From contig NZ_JQKJ01000020.1 of the NCBI RefSeq assembly GCF_000745975.1, positions 1 to 64,000 on the forward strand: DNA of 64,000 nucleotides, in the 5' to 3' direction. The notes under the pieces were generated by a model, which did no database searches, was not told the DNA's origin, and saw only the letters and a list, made by a program, of their open reading frames with translations. The translations under genes were made by a program, and so were the position numbers. This stretch comes from Desulfobacter vibrioformis DSM 8776 (GTDB taxonomy: Bacteria; Desulfobacterota; Desulfobacteria; Desulfobacterales; Desulfobacteraceae). Position 1 is the first letter of the stretch. Each line of letters starts with the position of its first letter. Of this stretch, positions 14,747 to 62,949 are shown one piece after another.

Positions 14747-14763
14747 TTGCAACAGCAGTGCCA
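14747..14763 (-). promoter_or_regulatory. Sigma-54 (-24/-12) promoter of pilA
   Basis: On the minus strand the sequence is TGGCAC-N5-TTGCAA, an exact match to the sigma-54 consensus (TGGCAC-N5-TTGCW). It is about 65-80 bases before the pilA start. With rpoN in the same window and a PilR-like activator next door, this is the classic pilA control arrangement. Confidence 0.92.
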
Positions 14764-14901: not shown

Positions 14902-16323
14902 TCAATCAGCCGCTTTTTCGTCAATCGTATCATCCTGGGGCTCAATTTTATCAAGGCGGTACCTGAAAGATCTCAGGGAAAGGTTTAAAAGCTCTGCGGC
15001 TTTGCTTTTATTGCCCCGGGCAGTTTCCATGGCTTTTCTGATATAGGCGCCCTCTATGCCCACCATGATTTTATCCAGGTCCACACCCGAAGCAACGTCT
15101 TCTATATCGTACCGTTCTCCCTTAATCCCCTCAATCCACCGTCTTCGTTTGTAAGATGAAATGGTTAAGCTTTCAGGCAGAATGATATTGGTTGAGGAGA
15201 GGGCAACCGACCGTTCAATCAGGTTCTCAAGCTCCCGGACATTGCCGGGAAAGGAATATTTGTTCAAAAAATCAATAGCATAGGAAGACAGCTTGGCAAT
15301 ATCCCTGCCAAGCTTTGCTGAATACTTTTCCACAAAATGGGCCGCAAGGAGCTCAACATCACCCCGTCTGTCCCGCAGCGGCGGCACCTTGATGGGGATC
15401 ACGTTCAGCCTGAAAAACAGGTCTTCCCTGAAATTGCCGTCAATGACTTCCTGTTCAAGTTTTTTGTTGGTGGCGGAAATGATCCGGACATTCACGTCAA
15501 TTTCCCGGGTACCGCCCACGGGCTTGAACCGGGTTTCCTGGACAGCCCGCAAAAGCTTTACCTGCAGAAAGGTAGACAGTTCGCCGATCTCATCAAGAAA
15601 AATCGTACCGGTATTGGCAGCCTCAAACAATCCCTGCTTGTCTGCCACCGCCCCTGTAAATGCCCCTTTGACATGGCCGAAAAATTCGCTTTCAATCAGC
15701 GTGTCCGGGATTCCGCCGCAGTTGACCACCACAAAGGGCCTGTCCTTGCGCTCGGAATTATCGTGGATGGCCTGGGCGATAAGCTCTTTGCCTGTACCGC
15801 TTTCACCGGTGATCAGCACATTGGTCTTGGTGGGGCCGATCTGGCGTATCCGCTGGTAAATCGCCTGCATGCCCGGGCTGTCACCGATGATGCGGCTGAA
15901 ATGCAGATGATTTTTAAGTTCAGTTGACCGGTACGCCTTTTCCTGCTCCAGGGTCAAAAGTTCCAGGGCCTTGGCAATGGTGGCGCACAGCTCATTGTTG
16001 TCAAAGGGCTTGGGCACAAAATCGTAAGCCCCCTCGTTCATTGCCTCCACTGCGATTTCCGTTGTGGCATAGGCGGAAATCATGATCACCACGGTGTCAG
16101 GATGCTTTTTTTTCACGGCCCGCAGCACATCCAGGCCCGTGATATCGCCCAGGCGGATATCGGTGAGCACCAGATCGTATTTTTTCTGCTTGATACTGCC
16201 CAGGGCCTGCTTGCCGTTTTTGACAAAATTGACCTTATACCCTCTTTTGGCCAGAAGCATCTCCAGGAACTGGCGCATGCTCAGTTCATCATCTACCACC
16301 AGAATGCTGTGTCCATCTGCCAT
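14902..16323 (-). CDS. pilR: Sigma-54-dependent response regulator, PilR-like
   Basis: 473 residues in three domains: receiver 1-120 (ILVVDDELSMRQFLEMLL, phospho-Asp in DLVLTDIRLGD), AAA+ 145-380 with Walker A GESGTGKE and the sigma-54 contact loop GAFTGA, and a Fis-type helix-turn-helix at the C-terminus (NKSKAAELLNLSLRSFRYRL). It would activate the TGGCAC-N5-TTGCAA promoter of pilA next door. No PilS sensor kinase gene is adjacent, so its partner must lie elsewhere or it may be a related NtrC-family regulator. Confidence 0.88.
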   Translation of the reverse strand: MADGHSILVVDDELSMRQFLEMLLAKRGYKVNFVKNGKQALGSIKQKKYDLVLTDIRLGDITGLDVLRAVKKKHPDTVVIMISAYATTEIAVEAMNEGAYDFVPKPFDNNELCATIAKALELLTLEQEKAYRSTELKNHLHFSRIIGDSPGMQAIYQRIRQIGPTKTNVLITGESGTGKELIAQAIHDNSERKDRPFVVVNCGGIPDTLIESEFFGHVKGAFTGAVADKQGLFEAANTGTIFLDEIGELSTFLQVKLLRAVQETRFKPVGGTREIDVNVRIISATNKKLEQEVIDGNFREDLFFRLNVIPIKVPPLRDRRGDVELLAAHFVEKYSAKLGRDIAKLSSYAIDFLNKYSFPGNVRELENLIERSVALSSTNIILPESLTISSYKRRRWIEGIKGERYDIEDVASGVDLDKIMVGIEGAYIRKAMETARGNKSKAAELLNLSLRSFRYRLDKIEPQDDTIDEKAAD

Positions 16324-52619: not shown

Positions 52620-53309
52620 ATGGACAGAAGAAAATTTTTAAAACTTTCAGCCGGTGCGGGAACCCTCGCACTGTTGCAAATGGCCGGTGTCAGCTGTATA
52701 GATTCTGGGGGGGGATCGATAACACTGCCGTCTTTGCCCTACAAAACCGATGCTCTTGAACCGTATATTTCTGAAAAAACAATTCGCTTTCACTACGGGA
52801 AGCACCATTCCGGGTATGTAAAAAAACTGAACCGGATGATCCAAGGCACCGCCTACGCCGGCCTGACCATTGAGGCAATTATTCAGAAAACCCACGGCAG
52901 TGCCGGTGAGGCCGGTATTTTCAATAATGCGGCCCAGGTCTTCAACCACACCTTCTATTGGAACAGCATGAAACCAGGCGGCGGCAATGTGCCTGCCGGT
53001 ATCATTGCCGAAAAAATTAACGCGGACTTCGGCAGTTATGACGCATTCAAAAAAGCTTTTGCATCCGCAGCGCTCTCCCAGTTCGGCAGCGGATGGGCAT
53101 GGTTGGTCAAAGACGGTGATGCGCTGAAAATCATCAAAACAGCAAACGCCGATACACCGCTTGCCCAAGGGCTGATTCCGATCCTTACCGTTGATGTATG
53201 GGAACATGCATATTATCTGGATTATCAGAACCGGCGGGCGGATTATATCGACGCCTATCTGAAAAATCTGGTCAACTGGGAGTTTGCACAAACCAACCTG
53301 GCCGGATAA
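52620..53309 (+). CDS. Exported Fe/Mn superoxide dismutase (Tat-type signal)
   Basis: 229 residues. The N-terminus [20 protein letters not shown] is a Tat signal (RRKFLK), with a Cys at 26 that might be lipidated. The mature part is a full Fe/Mn-[19 protein letters not shown] and [11 protein letters not shown] supply the four metal ligands. Exported Fe/Mn-SODs are uncommon; here it would protect periplasmic redox proteins in an oxygen-exposed anaerobe. GGAGGG precedes the ATG. Confidence 0.92.
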
Positions 53310-55693: not shown

Positions 55694-56935
55694 TTAGGAA
55701 AGAAGAAAATACCGGTTGCTGCTTTCCCTGACCGCTACCCGGGGAATGGGCTTGATGAATTGCTGGCGAAGGCTGTAAGTATATGCCCCCTGGGCCGGAA
55801 TCATGAGGATGTCATCCTCCTTGATAGCCGAACCGAAATAGGCATATCCCCAGACATCGTGGGGGGTGCATAACGAGCCCAGAATATGGCATTTTTTTTC
55901 GGCCAAGCCAGGCCGGGTTAAATTAAGCACCGGGCAGTAATCGGTTTCATACCGTTCCCAGCCGACAGTATTCCCCCCGGCATCGGTGATGACCAGATCC
56001 TTATCCTTGCAATCCACCACCTGGATGAGGATGTGCATGGCATCATTGCAGATCCAGCGGCCCGGCTCGAAACAGATCCGGCACTGGACCAAAGGCAGGA
56101 TGTGGTTTTTAATGGCAGTTGACAGGTGTGTGGCAAACAGATCAATGGAGACACCCGGGTCAATAATATAGTCCTGGGGCAGATCCGATAAAAGCCACTC
56201 CCCCTGGGCAGGCCAGTATCCGCCGCCAATATCAATGAATTTAACCGCATCCAGGAACTGCTTTGGCATGGTGGAAAGGATATCTCCCAGCTTTCTGATA
56301 AACGCTGTCTGCCTGTCCGGATTAAGGTTCCAGGAGGAGTGGAACTGCAGTCCCTGGAAATCCAGCCGGTTAAGTGACTGGATCTCTTTGAACGCAGATA
56401 ACAGATTTTCCGGCAACACCCCGAATTTGCGCCACAGGCCTTCGGGGTTGTTGTTCAGCCGCAGCCCTACGGGCATGCGGGTTTGCTTTTCTTCAAGTAC
56501 TGATGCCAGCCGTCTTGCCTCTCCCATGCTGTCCAGAAGAATCACCACCCGGTCCGGATACCGGGCCGCAAGTGCCAGTTCCTGGATGGTTTTTCCCGGA
56601 CCGCTGAAAATAATGGATGACGCACCCAGCTCCAGGGCCACTGACAATTCTACACCGCTGGATACATCCAGCCCGAATCCGTGTTTAAGCAGATGCCCAC
56701 AAAGATGGGGCAGGTTATTGCTTTTCATGGCGTAAAAAAATGCGGTTTCCGGCAGCCGGTGGCTGAATGCCGCCCTGAACTGGGCCGCTTTTCTTGCCAG
56801 GACATCGGTTTCCAGAACATACAGGGGAGACCCGAACGCCTTGGCCATATCCAGGTACACCCCCTTGTTTTTTAAGTACGGATTTATAAACTCAATTACT
56901 TTTTCCCGGGACAGAATGGTGCCTGGGCCTGTCAT
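55694..56935 (-). CDS. Fold-type III PLP-dependent decarboxylase
   Basis: 413 residues of the LysA/ODC/DapDC fold. The PLP lysine is K71 in F-F-Y-A-M-K-S-N-N. A second-domain G-S-L-C-T-P-H-D-V-W-G supplies the Cys and Asp that contact the substrate from the partner subunit. The substrate could be an ornithine-, lysine-, carboxynorspermidine- or diaminopimelate-like amino acid. The ATG at 56935 overlaps the ATP-grasp stop (ATGA), so translation is coupled. It ends the operon. Confidence 0.85.
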   Translation of the reverse strand: MTGPGTILSREKVIEFINPYLKNKGVYLDMAKAFGSPLYVLETDVLARKAAQFRAAFSHRLPETAFFYAMKSNNLPHLCGHLLKHGFGLDVSSGVELSVALELGASSIIFSGPGKTIQELALAARYPDRVVILLDSMGEARRLASVLEEKQTRMPVGLRLNNNPEGLWRKFGVLPENLLSAFKEIQSLNRLDFQGLQFHSSWNLNPDRQTAFIRKLGDILSTMPKQFLDAVKFIDIGGGYWPAQGEWLLSDLPQDYIIDPGVSIDLFATHLSTAIKNHILPLVQCRICFEPGRWICNDAMHILIQVVDCKDKDLVITDAGGNTVGWERYETDYCPVLNLTRPGLAEKKCHILGSLCTPHDVWGYAYFGSAIKEDDILMIPAQGAYTYSLRQQFIKPIPRVAVRESSNRYFLLS

Positions 56936-58251
56936 CTGTGTATTGGCTGTGAGCATGCATAATCCATTTCAATGTCGATACGTTTGGCGAGCAAAAGGCA
57001 CTCTGTCTCAAAAAATCTGCGCCTGTGCGGTTCTATGATCATGTGTCCTAAAAGCCATGAATCATAGTCTTGGGGCGGCAGGGTTACCCTGTGCCCCGGG
57101 GCGTGGATCAGGTGTATTTTTTTGACCCGGTCATCCTTTTCCACGGCAGCCGTGTTGACGCGTTTTAATACACCATTTTTGCGGGCATGGATACGGAATG
57201 CCACCAGGGGGGCATATGGCCCTTTTTTTTCGTTTTTCCAGGCAACGCCTGCCGCCGCATCCAGGGTCAGCCCTATTATGTCGATGTTGCCCGCTTCCTT
57301 GAGCAGAAAGGGCAGACAGTCTCCGCCGGGCCGCGGGGTCATCTCTATGAGTACGGGCTTTCTGTTTCGCAGGATAAAATCCACCATGCAGACCCCGGTT
57401 TCTATACCCAATGCCCTGGCTGCCCGGTAGAACAGGTCAGAAAGAATTTCATTGGAAGGCGTTTTTGCATCATCATTGTTTTCCGGGCAGATCGCATACC
57501 CGGAAATGGTGCCGAATGGCCGGCTGTCCACCTTTATTTTCCGGGTTTTGCGCAAAATAACGGCCCGGTCTTCTTCCATGAGAAAATCACAGGAAAACTC
57601 AGGACCGGCCACCCATTCTTCGGCCAACATCCGGAATGTGCCGGCATCCGTGGGTTTAAACAATGGATTGCCGGTCCGTGCCGCAAGCCCGTCTGCCACT
57701 GCATTGAACGCGGTATCACACTCTTTTCGGGTCACGCATTTGAATACAAGTTCGCTGCCGGAACCGCAAAAGGGTTTGAGTACAATGCCTGCCGGTAACT
57801 GGTCCAGGAAGTTCAATACCTCAATTTCGGTATTGACCGGGCAGGTTTCGGGACAAGGGATCTGGCATTGTCTCCACAATTGTTTTGAAATAAATTTATC
57901 CCTGCTGTGCCTGACCGCCCCGAGATCGGGGTAGGAAAGCCCCATCTTTTTTGCCAGAATGGATGTGATCTCCATGGATTCGCAGTCAAAACAGGCAATG
58001 CCGGAAAGGGTGATCCCGAAGGTTTTTTTGTGGTGGTTTAATGCCTGAATTGCGGCGTCAATATCACAGATGGGGCATAAAATTTCCTCTCCGTTTTCCG
58101 GACAGGGCTCGGTTGCATTCTGACGAACCTTTGGTTCCGTCAAAAAAAGTGCCTGCCCGGGACGGACATTTCTGATCCACTCAATGTAATCAGATGTGGT
58201 GCCCACCACCAGCACCCGATTTTTTTTAAGCTCACACAGCTTTTCGCCCAT
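56932..58251 (-). CDS. ATP-grasp ligase
   Basis: 439 residues. An N-terminal pre-ATP-grasp domain (about 1-120) is followed by an ATP-grasp domain: GIVLKPFCGSGSELVFK (ATP-binding Lys/Gly loop) and VLIEMTPRPGGDCLPF (metal-binding Glu/Asn-like). It should join a carboxylate to an amine or peptide through an acyl phosphate. The ATG at 58251 is within the GNAT stop region behind GGGAG. Substrates are unknown; the peptide gene at the head of the operon is a candidate. Confidence 0.85.
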   Translation of the reverse strand: MGEKLCELKKNRVLVVGTTSDYIEWIRNVRPGQALFLTEPKVRQNATEPCPENGEEILCPICDIDAAIQALNHHKKTFGITLSGIACFDCESMEITSILAKKMGLSYPDLGAVRHSRDKFISKQLWRQCQIPCPETCPVNTEIEVLNFLDQLPAGIVLKPFCGSGSELVFKCVTRKECDTAFNAVADGLAARTGNPLFKPTDAGTFRMLAEEWVAGPEFSCDFLMEEDRAVILRKTRKIKVDSRPFGTISGYAICPENNDDAKTPSNEILSDLFYRAARALGIETGVCMVDFILRNRKPVLIEMTPRPGGDCLPFLLKEAGNIDIIGLTLDAAAGVAWKNEKKGPYAPLVAFRIHARKNGVLKRVNTAAVEKDDRVKKIHLIHAPGHRVTLPPQDYDSWLLGHMIIEPHRRRFFETECLLLAKRIDIEMDYACSQPIHR

Positions 58252-59188
58252 AATGGCTCCCATGGAGAATAGCCGTGTCCGGCTGGGTGTGAATCTCATA
58301 TGACGGTCTGGGGCTTAAGCGAAACCGTTCTTTCCAGTTAAAACTGCCGCACAGAAAATCCACGGCTTCCATCCGGTTGTGGCAGGCCCATTCCAGGTGG
58401 TGCAGGTTGATCACCTTGGCGATACCGACAAAATCCGGGTGGGTCCCTCCGGCGACAACCGTGCAGGTGTTGTTGAAAACAGCCCCCATGTCCACGGCTG
58501 CAACCTTTCCTTCCACAATGGCTGTGGTGATCCTGAGCATGCCCATATCTTTCAGATACCCTGCAAATCGTTCAAAGGACCGGTAAAACCGCGCATCACT
58601 GAAGTAGGAATCCGATGTAAATGCGGCCATGTTCAAACGGAACATTTCGGCCAGATCCGGCAGGTGATTGTACCGCCAGGTGAGCTGCCGCGCCTCAATT
58701 TTTTTTACATCTGCCTTGAGTTTTTTTCTGCTTTTCCCCGGGAATGACAGCCAGAAATTATCCATGGAAAAATCATAAATCCGGGGGTAAAACAGGTATC
58801 CGGTTTCATCGGGGCAGGTTTGCTCTATGTTGTCAAACAGCGGGTTGGTGCGCAGATACCTTAAATTCAATGGGCCGGGAACGGAGTCGCACAATGCAGT
58901 GAACACCTCCGGGGATTCGGCTATGATCCGGTTCTGCTCCAGCCAGGTTTTACCTTTCCAGGTCTCGCCGGGGAAGAATACGTATTCACCGGTCTCTTCA
59001 ACCAGACTTAATGGAAGAAACCCCACAACCCGGCCCTTGTCCTCGATAAGATGGAAGCTTAAAGGTCTTTTGAATGCGGCGTTAAAACATTGTCTGACTG
59101 CCCAAAGATCAAATATATCCTGGACCGGCCAGTATTTTTCCCAGGCCTGCCGGCAAAGTTCCGGATCTGTAATAATAATGGATTTCAT
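58232..59188 (-). CDS. FemAB/GNAT-like acyl- or aminoacyl-transferase
   Basis: 318 residues. The C-terminal half has a GNAT-like core (M-L-R-I-T-T-A-I-V-E-G-K-V-A-A-V-D-M-G, V-A-G-G-T-H-P-D-F) typical of Acetyltransf_6/FemAB proteins that transfer acyl or amino acids. I chose the ATG at 59188; an upstream in-frame start would run into the SpeD-like gene. It ends 20 bases into the ATP-grasp gene. Confidence 0.7.
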   Translation of the reverse strand: MKSIIITDPELCRQAWEKYWPVQDIFDLWAVRQCFNAAFKRPLSFHLIEDKGRVVGFLPLSLVEETGEYVFFPGETWKGKTWLEQNRIIAESPEVFTALCDSVPGPLNLRYLRTNPLFDNIEQTCPDETGYLFYPRIYDFSMDNFWLSFPGKSRKKLKADVKKIEARQLTWRYNHLPDLAEMFRLNMAAFTSDSYFSDARFYRSFERFAGYLKDMGMLRITTAIVEGKVAAVDMGAVFNNTCTVVAGGTHPDFVGIAKVINLHHLEWACHNRMEAVDFLCGSFNWKERFRLSPRPSYEIHTQPDTAILHGSHYGRKAV

Positions 59189-59198
59189 CGTTATCCAC

Positions 59199-59588
59199 CT
59201 AATGCCGGTAAGTGACGTTGAGCCGGGAAGTTTTCCCGCCGAAATAGTTCTGGGCAAATTCCCGGACCACCTCGGGGTCGTAGACCTTGCATGAAAACAC
59301 ATCCAGATAAGTAACATTGCTCTGATTGGCAAAGTGGGCGGATATCAATGAGGTTTCAATGAGTTGGACCATTGAAAATCCGGCAACCTTTTCGTCCTCA
59401 CCAAAATGAACCACCTGGGTCTCACCAAAGCGTTTCATTTCAATCAGGTCGCACAGTTCCACAACAAAGCGCTTGATCAGTTCAGCATCCCTGATTTTTG
59501 CAGGGTCGCAGTCATAGATGTCAATGGCGGACGCAATGCCCCACACGTCAGGGGCGGTGTCAATTTTCATTACGTTTGCAGCGGTCAT
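59199..59588 (-). CDS. SpeD-like pyruvoyl-dependent decarboxylase with altered substrate site
   Basis: 129 residues of the AdoMet-decarboxylase (SpeD) fold. Ser80, His85 and Cys100 keep the spacing of the catalytic Ser63/His68/Cys83 of the Thermotoga enzyme, so self-cleavage to a pyruvoyl group is expected. Two differences matter: the residue before Ser80 is Thr instead of the usual Glu, and H-T-W-P-E after the His is H-F-A-N-Q, losing the Glu that holds the AdoMet ribose. Some SpeD homologues are known to have become arginine or ornithine decarboxylases. No spermidine synthase is near. GGAGAA precedes the ATG. Confidence 0.82.
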   Translation of the reverse strand: MTAANVMKIDTAPDVWGIASAIDIYDCDPAKIRDAELIKRFVVELCDLIEMKRFGETQVVHFGEDEKVAGFSMVQLIETSLISAHFANQSNVTYLDVFSCKVYDPEVVREFAQNYFGGKTSRLNVTYRH

Positions 59589-59618
59589 GTTTTTTCTCCT
59601 TTAAATTCAAAATGCGGC

Positions 59619-59780
59619 CTACCATTTGTCTTTGGTGTCTGCCGGACGTTTTGGCTTTTTATTCATTTTTTTCCGTCGTTTCTGGTCTTCCTGCTTATCT
59701 TCCCAGTCATACTCTTCGTCGTAACTTTCTTTAAATCTTGGGCTCTTGTCTTTGTTCTGACTAAACTTTTCCCTGGCCAT
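59619..59780 (-). CDS. 53-residue highly charged peptide, first gene of the SpeD/ATP-grasp operon
   Basis: An ATG at 59780 behind AGGAAAGGAAG opens M-A-R-E-K-F-S-Q-N-K and the protein ends D-T-K-D-K-W. It has 18 basic and 13 acidic residues and no Cys, so 31 of 53 are charged. The acidic cluster Y-D-E-E-Y-D-W-E-D is in the middle and a basic tail follows. It is too short for standard gene lists. It lies 30 bases before the SpeD-like gene and about 75 bases after the sigma-54 promoter. It could be a precursor, a carrier peptide for the ATP-grasp ligase, or a small structural protein. Confidence 0.7.
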   Translation of the reverse strand: MAREKFSQNKDKSPRFKESYDEEYDWEDKQEDQKRRKKMNKKPKRPADTKDKW

Positions 59781-59854
59781 GACTTCCTTTCCTCTCTGGT
59801 TTTGGGGCGGCTGTTTTCAGCCGGGTGGGTTGGATTTAATTCCTGAATCTCTTT

Positions 59855-59870
59855 AGCAACCTGTGTGCCA
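59855..59870 (-). promoter_or_regulatory. Sigma-54 promoter of the peptide/SpeD-like operon
   Basis: The minus strand reads TGGCAC-N5-TTGCT, an exact consensus -24/-12 element, 75 bases before the peptide start. A divergent enhancer-binding protein begins 337 bases away, so activator and target face each other across an A/T-rich gap where activator sites can lie. Confidence 0.93.
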
Positions 59871-60206
59871 GTTTTGGCATAAAAAGACAAATGACTATAA
59901 ATACAAATAGTTATAATATTCAATACAATCCATGTGTTAATTTTTTCGGAATATATTTACTTAAAAAAGAAAATAATGAGAAATAATAGCTAAATTGGTA
60001 ATTTTCAGCCGATTTACACTGTGATTATCTATGACATTCTTAAATCAGGACAAAATAATAGACAGCACATCTATAACACGACCACCATGTTATGTCGAGA
60101 TTTAAAACTGATTATAAAAGTATGTTGCTTGTTTTTTGAAATTTTTATACACTTCAGAAAGTTATATAAAATAGTAATATTTTACCGGAAATGGAATGCG
60201 ATTTTT

Positions 60207-61628
60207 ATGCTGATTCGACTGGCATGTGCCATTAAAGAGACAAAAATACGCACTGAGCTTGCAAACAGACTGGCGGAACAGGATGTTCAGCTTCAATTTT
60301 TTAAACCCAGTACCCTTTCCTGGCAGGCCCTTGCCAGGAGCTGCGCCGACGTGTTTATTGTCAGCAGTCCGGCAATTCCCAAACCTGTTGAATCAAGCAT
60401 TTCTCTGCTCAATGAACTGCCGGAAGCGCCCATGACCATTGTGCTGCATAATCGGGAGTCCTCGGAAGAGCATGCCAATCTTCTGGCTTCCGGTGTTGAT
60501 GTGGTGCTTTATTCCGGTATTCCAATGGACAGCCTTTTAGAAGCCCTGGAATCTACGCTGGAATCACGCCGTCAGTTCTATTATGCGGAACGCTTTGACC
60601 GGCGGGGACGTTTTCTGCCCCGGCTCAACGATTTTACCTCTAACAGCCGGGACATGCAGGTATTTCTGGATGAAACCCGGCAGGTGGTGTCCAGCGACGC
60701 CACCATACTGCTGCTTGGGGAAACAGGCGTGGGCAAGGAGCATCTGTCCAAGGCCATTCATGCGGACAGCCACAGATCCACAGGCCCTTTTATTGCCATC
60801 AACATGGCAGCCATTCCCGAACAGCTTATGGAAAGCGAGTTGTTCGGGCATGAGCAGGGGGCCTTTACCGGAGCGGTGCGCTCCCGGCGGGGCGCATTTG
60901 AACTTGCCCATGGCGGCACTATTTTTCTGGATGAAATCGGTGACATGCCCCTGCAGATGCAGACCAAACTTCTCCGGGTGCTGCAGGAACTCGAATTTAC
61001 GCCCGTGGGCGGTGAACAACCGTTATGGGTGGATGTCCGGGTGATTGCGGCCACCAATAAGGACCTTGAGGATGAAGTTGAAAAGGGTAATTTCCGAAAG
61101 GATCTTTATTACCGGCTCGGGGTAATTTCATTAACGCTGCCCCCCTTGAGAAACCGTAAAGAAGATATACCCTCACTGGCCAACCATTTTCTAACCATGA
61201 ACCAGCAGAAATTCGGCAGAAATTTAAAACGTTTTTCCCAGCCAGCCATGGAGGCGATGTGCAACTACCACTGGCCGGGCAATATCCGGGAATTGATGAA
61301 CGTCATTGAACGGGCTGTCCTGCTGTGCAAGTCTGATATGATCACCCTGGAAGAGCTGCCGTCGGTTTTGCATAATGCCAAGCCTGTCCGAATGGGCGGT
61401 ATTGCATCGGCACTTTCCCTGCCCCGGGAATGGGAAACCATGACCCTGCACCAGGTCCGGGATGTCGTGTATGACCAGGTGGAAGCATTGTATCTGACCA
61501 TGGTGCTGAAAAAAACTTGTGGCAAAATCGGAGAAACCGCAAAAATTGCAGGCATTCATCCCAGGGGCCTGTATGCCAAAATGAAAAAACTGGGACTTGA
61601 TAAAGCTGGATTTAAAGCCAAAGGATAG
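60207..61628 (+). CDS. Sigma-54 enhancer-binding protein with non-phosphorylatable receiver-like domain
   Basis: 473 residues. Residues 1-130 look like a receiver domain, but the strand that normally ends in the phospho-Asp reads A-D-V-F-I-V-S-S, so phosphorylation is unlikely. The AAA+ part has G-E-T-G-V-G-K-E (Walker A) and the intact GAFTGA loop, and a Fis-type helix-turn-helix closes the protein (KIGETAKIAGIHPRGLYAK). I chose the ATG at 60207, where the receiver-like domain starts. It most likely controls the sigma-54 promoter facing it. A ligand or another protein may replace phosphorylation as the signal. Confidence 0.88.
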   Translation: MLIRLACAIKETKIRTELANRLAEQDVQLQFFKPSTLSWQALARSCADVFIVSSPAIPKPVESSISLLNELPEAPMTIVLHNRESSEEHANLLASGVDVVLYSGIPMDSLLEALESTLESRRQFYYAERFDRRGRFLPRLNDFTSNSRDMQVFLDETRQVVSSDATILLLGETGVGKEHLSKAIHADSHRSTGPFIAINMAAIPEQLMESELFGHEQGAFTGAVRSRRGAFELAHGGTIFLDEIGDMPLQMQTKLLRVLQELEFTPVGGEQPLWVDVRVIAATNKDLEDEVEKGNFRKDLYYRLGVISLTLPPLRNRKEDIPSLANHFLTMNQQKFGRNLKRFSQPAMEAMCNYHWPGNIRELMNVIERAVLLCKSDMITLEELPSVLHNAKPVRMGGIASALSLPREWETMTLHQVRDVVYDQVEALYLTMVLKKTCGKIGETAKIAGIHPRGLYAKMKKLGLDKAGFKAKG

Positions 61629-61634
61629 TTGTCC

Positions 61635-62225
61635 ATGTATTCGCCCTTTCACTACCAGATTTCTGAATATGACTGTGTGCCCACAGCCATTACCAATGCC
61701 ATCTCCTTTTTGTTCCAACGTAAGGAAATCCCCCCCATGGTTATCCATCATATTTACCTTTACTGCCTTGATACGGTAGGACGGGATTCCCGGTTCGGTA
61801 TTGGCGGCACCAGTAAATATGCCGTACGTCTGGTGGGCAACTGGCTTAATTCTTACCGGATGAAATCCTTTTCCGTTGCCACGCAGTTTCTGGAAAAAGA
61901 ACAGGTTACCATGAAACCGGGCGGGCAGATCGAATCCTGCCTGTCAGAGGGCGGGGTGGTGCTGTGCAATACCCTTTTGACCCCCCGGGATGAACATTAT
62001 CTTATGGTAACGGCCATGGATGACACGTGGATTTACTGCTTTGATTCCTACCGCAGGCAGTCCATCCGAGGCATGAAAGGAACAGTCCGGTTGATTGATG
62101 ACGGAGACGGCCGGTCTGCCAATCTGAAAATAAGGCGGGACTGGGCCAGGCAGGACCAGATGAAACGGTTCTGCCTGGGTCCCATACAGATGCGTGAAAG
62201 TCTTTTAATCTGGCGGACATCTTAA
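61635..62225 (+). CDS. C39-like cysteine peptidase
   Basis: 196 residues with a papain-like C39 pattern: Cys14 in I-S-E-Y-D-C-V-P-T-A, His121 in R-D-E-H-Y-L-M-V and Asp137 in C-F-D-S-Y, in the order Cys, His, Asp. It lacks membrane and ABC domains, unlike exporters that cut bacteriocin leaders. It begins 6 bases after the regulator stop, with AAGGATAG as ribosome site. It may trim the 53-residue peptide or cleave its product; that is inference. Confidence 0.72.
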   Translation: MYSPFHYQISEYDCVPTAITNAISFLFQRKEIPPMVIHHIYLYCLDTVGRDSRFGIGGTSKYAVRLVGNWLNSYRMKSFSVATQFLEKEQVTMKPGGQIESCLSEGGVVLCNTLLTPRDEHYLMVTAMDDTWIYCFDSYRRQSIRGMKGTVRLIDDGDGRSANLKIRRDWARQDQMKRFCLGPIQMRESLLIWRTS

Positions 62226-62232
62226 ATCCGAA

Positions 62233-62622
62233 TCAGGATATAAGGGCCTCCATGCGCTCCTGCGCTTCCTTGCACGCGATGCATTTGGAGGTCACAGGAC
62301 GGACATTGAGCCGTTTGAGGGAGATCTCTTCACCACAGATGTCACAGTATCCATAGGAACCCTCCTCTATTCTTTTAAGCGCGTCTTTGATTTTTTTGAT
62401 CAACCTGCTTTTCCGGCTGTGCAGATGCAAGTTCATGGTGCGGTTGATATCGGCTGCAGTGGAATCAATCAATTCCGTATCCCTGCTGCGTTCCAGCATC
62501 AGTTCTGACACGGCAGAGTCGGCCTGGTCCAGCAGCTCTCTCATGGCGGTGTTCAGCATTTTTTTAAAACGGTCCAGCTCTTCATCGGTGATATGGGGTC
62601 TGTCAATTACTTCGGTGGTCAT
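62233..62622 (-). CDS. dksA: DksA/TraR-family zinc-finger protein
   Basis: 129 residues. A helical coiled coil carries the D-S-T-A-A-D-I-N acidic tip, and the C-terminal C4 zinc finger reads Y-C-D-I-C-G-E-E-I then C-I-A-C-K-E-A-Q-E. It binds the RNA-polymerase secondary channel and may mediate ppGpp response. The gene is convergent with the C39-like gene. Confidence 0.9.
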   Translation of the reverse strand: MTTEVIDRPHITDEELDRFKKMLNTAMRELLDQADSAVSELMLERSRDTELIDSTAADINRTMNLHLHSRKSRLIKKIKDALKRIEEGSYGYCDICGEEISLKRLNVRPVTSKCIACKEAQERMEALIS

Positions 62623-62639: not shown

Positions 62640-62949
62640 TAGGTAAGGCCGCTCAATATGTGGACTTGGGGATGAAAAGTGCCCGGATCGTCGTTAATGC
62701 CCCAACCGCTGTCATCCGGCAGCAGTCAAGTCCGTGTAGGCGGGCAGCTGAATGCCAATGTATAGCAATAACAGTGCCAGGAATATTTACAGCCTATAAT
62801 CCTGAACGTACCAACGCATTAACGCCGGCCAGGACATCTAAGTTCCGATTTTGACAGATTTAACTTTGTCTTTGGACATGCCGCGTCCGCTTTCCTTTTT
62901 CTTAATGCTGTTTTTATTGTTTATGCGCCTCCCAGACAGGCAAAAAAAA
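62640..62949. other. Intergenic region, no gene seen
   Basis: About 310 bases without a supportable gene. A short minus-strand frame near 62850-62930 (N-S-I-K-K-K-E-S-G-R-G-M-S-K-D-K) reads plausibly but has no good start; I do not call it. Confidence 0.4.

What the first reader, a model, noticed from the sequence alone, without database searches (positions are those of the whole stretch)
55694..62225. Divergent sigma-54-controlled locus: charged peptide, SpeD-like enzyme, FemAB/GNAT, ATP-grasp, PLP decarboxylase, C39-like peptidase
Seven genes plus an exact -24/-12 promoter form a self-contained module. Three start/stop overlaps show coupled translation on the left, and the regulator with peptidase lie divergently on the right. 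Decarboxylase, ligase, transferase and peptidase together with a tiny charged first gene suggest a pathway that builds a modified peptide or polyamine-type amide. The gene combination matches no named pathway I know.
Basis: partly seen in the sequence, partly recalled or inferred. Interest (0 to 1): 0.9.

Follow-up and report, generated by a model that had tools for sequence, protein, structure and literature searches.

The report
Widespread cassette for a putrescine-based amide
A set of four enzyme genes that stay together in the same order in many bacteria probably makes a still unknown small molecule from putrescine by linking it to amino acids, and no named pathway was found that matches it.

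Summary
The seven genes and the -24/-12 promoter are real. Related loci show that the conserved unit is four enzymes: SpeD-like, FemX-like, ATP-grasp, PLP decarboxylase. Of 75 related loci with enough downstream sequence, 71 hold all four in this order and strand. In a 148-genome phylum sample, all nine genomes with the FemX-like gene carry the SpeD-like gene beside it. The 'SpeD' does not score as an AdoMet decarboxylase. It carries the residues reported as diagnostic for SpeDC, the pyruvoyl L-ornithine decarboxylase (81 of 81 sequences), and groups with SpeDC domains. It should therefore make putrescine. The second protein folds like FemX and tRNA-dependent peptide synthases. The ATP-grasp resembles L-amino-acid ligases. 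The PLP enzyme resembles decarboxylases of conjugated amino acids. The best reading is a pathway to a putrescine-based amide; donors, order and product are inferred. The charged peptide is a real gene but occurs in only 24 of 81 loci, and the C39-like gene is accessory, so the peptide is unlikely to be the general substrate. Sigma-54 control is conserved in most loci; a TetR gene lies upstream in 14 of 89.

The parts
59619..59780 (-). Charged 53-aa protein (PEP), first gene of the operon
   Evidence: No Pfam or NCBIfam hit; purifying selection; relatives within about 200 bp upstream of the SpeD-like gene in 24 of 81 loci
59199..59588 (-). SpeDC-type pyruvoyl L-ornithine decarboxylase (predicted pyruvoyl Ser80, His85, Cys100)
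   Evidence: PF02675 82.7 bits; Q75/T79/S80/H85/F86/Y94/C100 in 81 of 81; groups with SpeDC domains of fusion proteins
58232..59188 (-). FemX-like double-GNAT aminoacyltransferase
56932..58299 (-). ATP-grasp ligase of L-amino-acid-ligase type (likely real start near 58251)
   Evidence: PF13535 41.1 bits; nearest solved structure L-amino acid ligase BL00235, E 4.4e-32; fused to the decarboxylase in 2 loci
55694..56956 (-). Alanine-racemase-fold PLP decarboxylase, predicted to act on a conjugated amino acid
   Evidence: PF02784 72.4 bits; nearest solved structures N-citrylornithine decarboxylase 7kh2, 6knh, BtrK; alignment A4
59855..59870 (-). sigma-54 (-24/-12) promoter of the operon
   Evidence: TGGCACACAGGTTGCT; conserved in 53 of 58 loci that hold an NtrC-type gene
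60207..61628 (+). Divergent NtrC-type sigma-54 activator with a receiver-like N-domain that has Ser, not Asp, at the phospho-acceptor site
   Evidence: PF00158 235 bits; N-domain alignment of 23 proteins; a divergent relative within 1.3 kb in 54 of 80 loci
61635..62225 (+). C39-like (papain-type) protein with conserved Cys14, His121, Asp137; accessory
   Evidence: Alignment A5 of 7; no Pfam hit; only in the window and 6 of 80 loci, but another C39 family recurs near the cassette elsewhere; the catalytic reading of the three residues is inferred

Best explanation
The locus is a conserved four-enzyme cassette that makes a small amide built on putrescine. Step 1: the SpeDC enzyme, with a pyruvoyl group formed from its own Ser80, decarboxylates L-ornithine to putrescine. 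Step 2: the FemX-fold transferase puts an aminoacyl group, most likely from an aminoacyl-tRNA, on an amine of putrescine or of a putrescine conjugate. Step 3: the ATP-grasp ligase forms a second amide with an amino acid or other carboxylic acid. Step 4: the PLP decarboxylase removes the carboxylate of the amino acid that was attached, leaving a new amine. The order of steps 2-4 is inferred; the ligase and decarboxylase are probably consecutive because they are fused in two loci. In this genome an NtrC-type activator switches the operon on from a -24/-12 promoter. Shown here: gene content, linkage, families, diagnostic residues, promoter conservation, predicted fold of the transferase. Inferred: all activities, substrates, the regulator's action and the product.
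For: Linkage: all four genes in order in 71 of 75 loci; 9 of 9 genomes with the FemX-like gene have the SpeDC gene beside it in a 148-genome phylum sample. SpeDC: the residues reported as diagnostic are invariant in 81 of 81 (criterion from PMC10407285 section 7); the tree groups it with SpeDC domains, 100/100 apart from AdoMetDC domains. Ser80 lies 49 residues from the C-terminus, as Ser229 does in the 278-aa D. phosphitoxidans fusion whose ODC domain was assayed. Six of 8 genomes searched hold no other match to P0004. Fold of the transferase. Ligase and decarboxylase families. Ligase-decarboxylase fusion in L068 and L077. No carrier protein stands out: a phosphopantetheine-type motif occurs in 2 of 1966 small ORFs around 77 cassettes. 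No transporter family of 100 aa or more was seen to recur with most cassettes.
Against: No activity was measured and no substrate is known for three of the four enzymes. The transferase is Acetyltransf_6 by sequence and an acyl-CoA donor is not excluded. Putrescine could also serve spermidine synthesis in genomes that have SpeE, such as this one. The branch to the AdoMetDC domains in the tree is very long and the bootstrap had not settled. A citrate synthase beside five cassettes and citryl-type relatives of the decarboxylase may point to citrate instead. Many loci are MAG contigs that may be misassigned, so the breadth across phyla is approximate.
Confidence: 0.5

Rival explanations
1. A citrate-based metallophore or citryl-polyamine: the ATP-grasp enzyme ligates citrate and the PLP enzyme works like FigC (N-citrylornithine) or SbnH (N-citryl-diaminopropionate).
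For: The nearest solved relative of the decarboxylase is N-citrylornithine decarboxylase. Its active-site loop reads C-T-P-H-D: His at the place of FigC His357, Thr-Pro as in 6knh (roles from PMC7857480 section 8). A citrate synthase gene follows the decarboxylase in L058, L061, L066, L094 and L115 (typed as citrate synthase II for L066).
Against: None of the seven window proteins is an NIS synthetase. No transporter was seen to recur with most cassettes. The citrate synthase was not found in most loci and may be a neighbour inherited by one lineage. The specificity-helix stretch also carries invariant acids (E337, D339), unlike the Thr and Tyr described for FigC.
Confidence: 0.15
2. Envelope modification: the FemX/MprF-like transferase with the ligase attaches a diamine or aminoacyl group to peptidoglycan or lipid.
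For: FemX, FemA and MprF are among the best fold matches. Most host groups named have an outer membrane (recalled).
Against: No further gene family of 100 aa or more, apart from the regulator, recurs in more than 12 of 80 loci, so no glycan or lipid enzyme is tied to the unit; the decarboxylase would have no obvious role.
Confidence: 0.13
3. Plain polyamine supply: SpeDC replaces the decayed ornithine decarboxylase domain of the genome's SpeD-SpeDC fusion and the other genes are only co-regulated.
For: This genome's fusion has Arg for Gln at a diagnostic site and a SpeE beside it; no PF01276 decarboxylase over the cut-off.
Against: Fixed four-gene linkage. Six of 8 genomes have the cassette but no other match to P0004 (a divergent true SpeD could be missed). 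Same-genus genomes G013, G004 and G015 have a fusion with altered key residues yet no intact cassette SpeDC gene.
Confidence: 0.12
4. Peptide-carrier or RiPP-like pathway in which the charged 53-aa peptide is the substrate.
For: The peptide is a real gene, just upstream of the SpeDC gene wherever found.
Against: Found in 24 of 81 loci (four more weak matches among the 89) and in no TetR-type locus, while the four enzymes persist; the C-terminus is not conserved in length or last residue.
Confidence: 0.05

Closest known systems
SpeDC pyruvoyl L-ornithine decarboxylases (PMC10407285)
   Same: Processing and catalytic residues and all four diagnostic residues; same tree group
   Different: The paper reports SpeDC in clusters with spermidine or homospermidine genes; the sections and passages I read do not mention a cluster with FemX-like, ATP-grasp and PLP genes
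FemABX-type tRNA-dependent transferases in natural products (Orf11/BD-12, VlmA, DhpH, PacB; passages of the review PMC12945691)
   Same: Double-GNAT fold; invariant aromatic-Lys pair (W285-K286) resembling DhpH-C F328-K329
   Different: Matches PF13480; donor and acceptor unknown
FigC/SbnH/AcsE/MccE/BtrK decarboxylases (PMC7857480)
   Same: Nearest solved relatives (FigC, BtrK; 6knh is SbnH by recall); no Asp next to the loop Cys; these act on a conjugated amino acid
   Different: 100 bits to the FslC model against a cut-off of 500; no NIS synthetase in the window set
Butirosin BtrJ/BtrK module (BtrJ recalled; BtrK from PMC7857480)
   Same: ATP-grasp ligase with an alanine-racemase-fold decarboxylase
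   Different: No acyl carrier protein found here; putrescine supply and a FemX-like enzyme instead
Rhizoferrin pathway (PMC7857480)
   Same: Ornithine/putrescine and an alanine-racemase-fold decarboxylase
   Different: ATP-grasp in place of NIS synthetase; decarboxylation of free ornithine predicted as well

Membership tests
SpeDC L-ornithine decarboxylase | Pyruvoyl Ser, catalytic His and Cys | tested here: met
   S80, H85, C100 in 81 of 81
SpeDC L-ornithine decarboxylase | Diagnostic Gln, Thr, Phe, Tyr in the central region | tested here: met
   Q75, T79, F86, Y94 in 81 of 81; the figure of PMC10407285 is not held, positions read from the order given in the text
SpeDC L-ornithine decarboxylase | Groups with SpeDC, apart from AdoMetDC | tested here: met
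   Tree of 60 rows; its SpeDC rows are fusion C-domains of relatives; whether one of them is the assayed protein was not checked
SpeDC L-ornithine decarboxylase | Decarboxylates L-ornithine | not testable with these tools
   Needs an enzyme assay
AdoMet decarboxylase (bona fide SpeD) | TIGR03330 score over cut-off | tested here: not met
   33.5 bits against 75.65
FemABX aminoacyl-tRNA transferases | Two GNAT domains arranged as in FemX | tested here: met
FemABX aminoacyl-tRNA transferases | Catalytic Lys near the C-terminus | tested here: inconclusive
   K286 invariant in 31 of 31; no residue-level superposition available
FemABX aminoacyl-tRNA transferases | Uses aminoacyl-tRNA | not testable with these tools
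   Needs an assay
L-amino acid ligases (ATP-grasp) | ATP-grasp fold family | tested here: met
   PF13535 41.1 bits against 27; 3vot E 4.4e-32
L-amino acid ligases (ATP-grasp) | LAL C-terminal domain 2 (PF18603) over cut-off | tested here: not met
   14.7 bits against 29.4
FigC/FslC N-citrylornithine decarboxylase | NF041039 score over cut-off | tested here: not met
   100.2 bits against 500
NIS siderophore pathway | An NIS synthetase in the gene set | tested here: not met
   None among the 7 window proteins
Peptide-carrier / RiPP pathway | A precursor or carrier peptide present wherever the enzymes are | tested here: not met
   24 of 81 loci

The most novel reading that the evidence does not exclude
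A widespread, undescribed branch of polyamine metabolism in which putrescine from a pyruvoyl ornithine decarboxylase is extended into a peptide-like oligoamine by a tRNA-dependent transferase, an ATP-dependent ligase and a second decarboxylation, kept as a portable four-gene cassette across many bacterial phyla.
Probability: 0.4. Interest if true: 0.85.

Novelty: new variant of a known kind. Interest (0 to 1): 0.68.

Why it matters
The cassette is small and tightly linked, and the record titles place it in many phylum-level groups, yet no named pathway fits. If the reading is right it points to an unknown common metabolite and gives a use for SpeDC outside spermidine and homospermidine synthesis. 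Four genes can be expressed together and the product sought by mass spectrometry, so the question is directly testable.

Tried and rejected
SpeD-like gene as AdoMet decarboxylase: rejected. Charged peptide as universal substrate or LysW-like carrier: rejected, it was not found in most loci and its C-terminus varies (the LysW comparison is recalled). Apparent stop codons inside the FemX-like gene in two genomes: the alignments hold no internal stop, so I take them to be the terminal stop. Carrier protein near the cassette: the 12 largest families of small ORFs (55-130 aa) look, from the positions of their example members, like reading frames that overlap the core genes, and a phosphopantetheine-type motif occurs in 2 of 1966 ORFs. 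Plasmid or phage origin: no plasmid match for P0003; for P0004 only 7 Sinorhizobium phage records at about 30% identity. Sequence profiles of the FemX-like and SpeDC families against the PDB gave nothing. Structure of the C39-like protein: model too poor to search (mean pLDDT 55.6). Papers: searches showed no description of this gene set in their listings. Those are the only searches behind the statement that it is not in print; most subscription papers and all bioRxiv preprints are outside the library. Papers seen: PMC10407285 (abstract, sections 6 and 7, part 1 of 2 of section 8, passages), PMC7857480 (abstract and start of the introduction, sections 8 and 9), PMC12945691 (passages only), the rest only as listings. 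Alignments A1-A4 use 30, 31, 30 and 33 rows chosen by hand for diversity and intact frames out of the window plus 80 loci. Limits: 80 of 149 confirmed relatives were kept by the tool; the independence test at phylum level covered only the SpeD-like and FemX-like genes at E up to 1e-30.
Full report
What is there. The window lies in a Desulfobacter-like genome (G000, 86 contigs; nearest titled loci Desulfobacter postgatei and D. latus, 93% and 91% identity in the SpeD-like protein). With the starts used here two gene pairs overlap, not three: ATP-grasp/FemAB and decarboxylase/ATP-grasp. The other two junctions are gaps of 10 and 30 bp.

The unit is four genes. A scan of the genome collection with the SpeD-like protein gave 149 confirmed relatives, of which 80 loci were kept. 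Of these 89 loci, 75 have more than 4.2 kb of sequence downstream, and 71 of the 75 hold SpeD-like, FemX-like, ATP-grasp and decarboxylase in the same order and strand. The exceptions are L045, L090, L096 and L109. In a phylum sample of 148 genomes including this one, the FemX-like family (E up to 1e-30) occurs in 9 genomes, and all 9 have the SpeD-like gene directly beside it. A tenth genome has only a weaker SpeD relative. Of the eight other genomes, seven show all four genes and in the eighth the contig ends inside the ATP-grasp gene. By record title the loci come from Desulfobacterota, Planctomycetota, Omnitrophota, Nitrospirota, Deferribacteraceae, Sumerlaeota, Krumholzibacteriia, Armatimonadetes and others. 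Hydrogenedentota, Eisenbacteria and GN15 titles (L082, L097, L108) are on short contigs that show only the first two genes. Many are MAGs and some titles may be wrong. Eight are from named records not marked as MAGs (L034, L039, L054, L070, L092, L095, L104, L107).

The cassette is patchy and is being lost in places. Within the genus some genomes keep only short remnants of the SpeD-like gene (G004, G015) or show none, and in one genome of the same family (G025, L018) the operon is broken.

The SpeD-like protein is of SpeDC type. It scores 33.5 bits against the AdoMet decarboxylase model (cut-off 75.65). A 2023 paper (PMC10407285; sections 6, 7 and part 1 of 8 read) shows that many SpeD homologues are pyruvoyl ornithine decarboxylases, marked by a Gln, a Thr, a Phe and a Tyr in the central region. 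In the window and all 80 related loci, Q75, T79, F86 and Y94 are invariant, as are S80, H85 and C100 (81 of 81). The SpeD-SpeDC fusions of two Desulfotignum genomes (L134, L135) have the same motif. Ser80 is 49 residues from the C-terminus, as Ser229 is in the 278-aa D. phosphitoxidans protein whose S229A mutant lost ornithine decarboxylase activity. In a tree, operon proteins and fusion C-domains form one group (100/100) apart from the AdoMetDC N-domains, and the fusion domains sit next to an operon protein (op_L095, 97/89) (the dividing branch is very long and the bootstrap had not settled). Six of eight genomes searched hold no other match to P0004. This genome does have a SpeD-SpeDC fusion with SpeE, but its C-domain has Arg at the diagnostic Gln.

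Ligase and decarboxylase. The ATP-grasp profile is closest to L-amino acid ligase BL00235 (4.4e-32), then to 4dim, deposited as phosphoribosylglycinamide synthetase (2.9e-30), then to BacD. The decarboxylase profile is closest to N-citrylornithine decarboxylase 7kh2, 6knh (SbnH by recall) and BtrK, a group that acts on conjugated amino acids (PMC7857480 section 9). Its loop reads C363-T-P-H-D. It lacks the Asp next to Cys that ornithine, arginine and diaminopimelate decarboxylases use, and has His (nearly invariant) where FigC has His357 (PMC7857480 section 8). The specificity-helix stretch carries invariant R335, E337 and D339, which would suit a substrate with both a carboxylate and an amine at the far end (inference). 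The two enzymes are one fused protein in L068 and L077, which suggests consecutive steps.

Regulation. A divergent relative of the activator lies within 1.3 kb in 54 of 80 loci. In an alignment of 23 activators the N-domain looks like a receiver, but the phospho-acceptor place is Ser in 20 rows, His or Asn in two, and Asp only in L104, which is a different, more distant activator. The next residue is Glu in 11 and Asp in 3 rows, so a shifted site is not excluded for those; the window protein has Ser-Ser. The -24/-12 site scores 9 or more of 12 in 53 of 58 loci with an NtrC-type gene, in 6 of 22 other loci (several of them cut by the contig end), and in 5.3% of shuffles. The 58 include a few unlike neighbours (L057, L060, L071, L104). 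Fourteen of 89 loci have a TetR gene just upstream.

Accessory genes. The charged peptide is a true gene found in 24 of 81 loci, within about 200 bp upstream of the SpeDC gene, with four more weak matches among the 89. P0007-like C39 proteins are in the window and 6 of 80 loci. A separate C39 family lies near the cassette in L074, L076, L096, L109 and L114 (PF13529 shown for L074 and L096). A citrate synthase follows the decarboxylase in five loci (L058, L061, L066, L094, L115); L091 has a different citrate synthase further off. These are hints, not tests.

Verdict. The evidence is strong that this is one conserved pathway and that its first enzyme makes putrescine. It is moderate for an amide product and weak for the identity of that product.

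Noticed in passing
62233-62622(-), site 62764-62779(-): A DksA/TraR-like gene next to the C39-like gene has its own near-perfect -24/-12 site (score 11 of 12); relatives of this gene near the cassette have a site of 10 or more in 6 of 10 other loci, so it may belong to the same sigma-54 regulon.
   Followed up: partly
L122:2669-3508(+), this genome's contig C4: A SpeD-SpeDC fusion followed by SpeE; the C-terminal domain has Arg at the diagnostic Gln, in line with the decay reported for Desulfobacter latus in PMC10407285.
   Followed up: partly
L018 and genomes G004, G015: Broken or remnant copies of the cassette in close relatives, so it is being lost in the group.
   Followed up: no
L058, L061, L066, L094, L115: A citrate synthase gene follows the cassette; an MgtC-like gene also recurs there (L080, L094, L096, L115; named by eye).
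   Followed up: partly
14748-14763(-): Another exact -24/-12 site of the window; it lies just upstream of the likely start of a type IV pilin ORF, with an NtrC-type response regulator gene next door at 14902-16323(-) (names by eye).
   Followed up: no
52620-53309(+): ORF that looks like an exported iron/manganese superoxide dismutase with an RR signal sequence (recognised by eye, not searched).
   Followed up: no
L020 and L104, upstream of the SpeDC gene: Small upstream ORFs that start with zinc-ribbon-like CxxC pairs and end in a charged tail with aromatic residues resembling the charged peptide.
   Followed up: no
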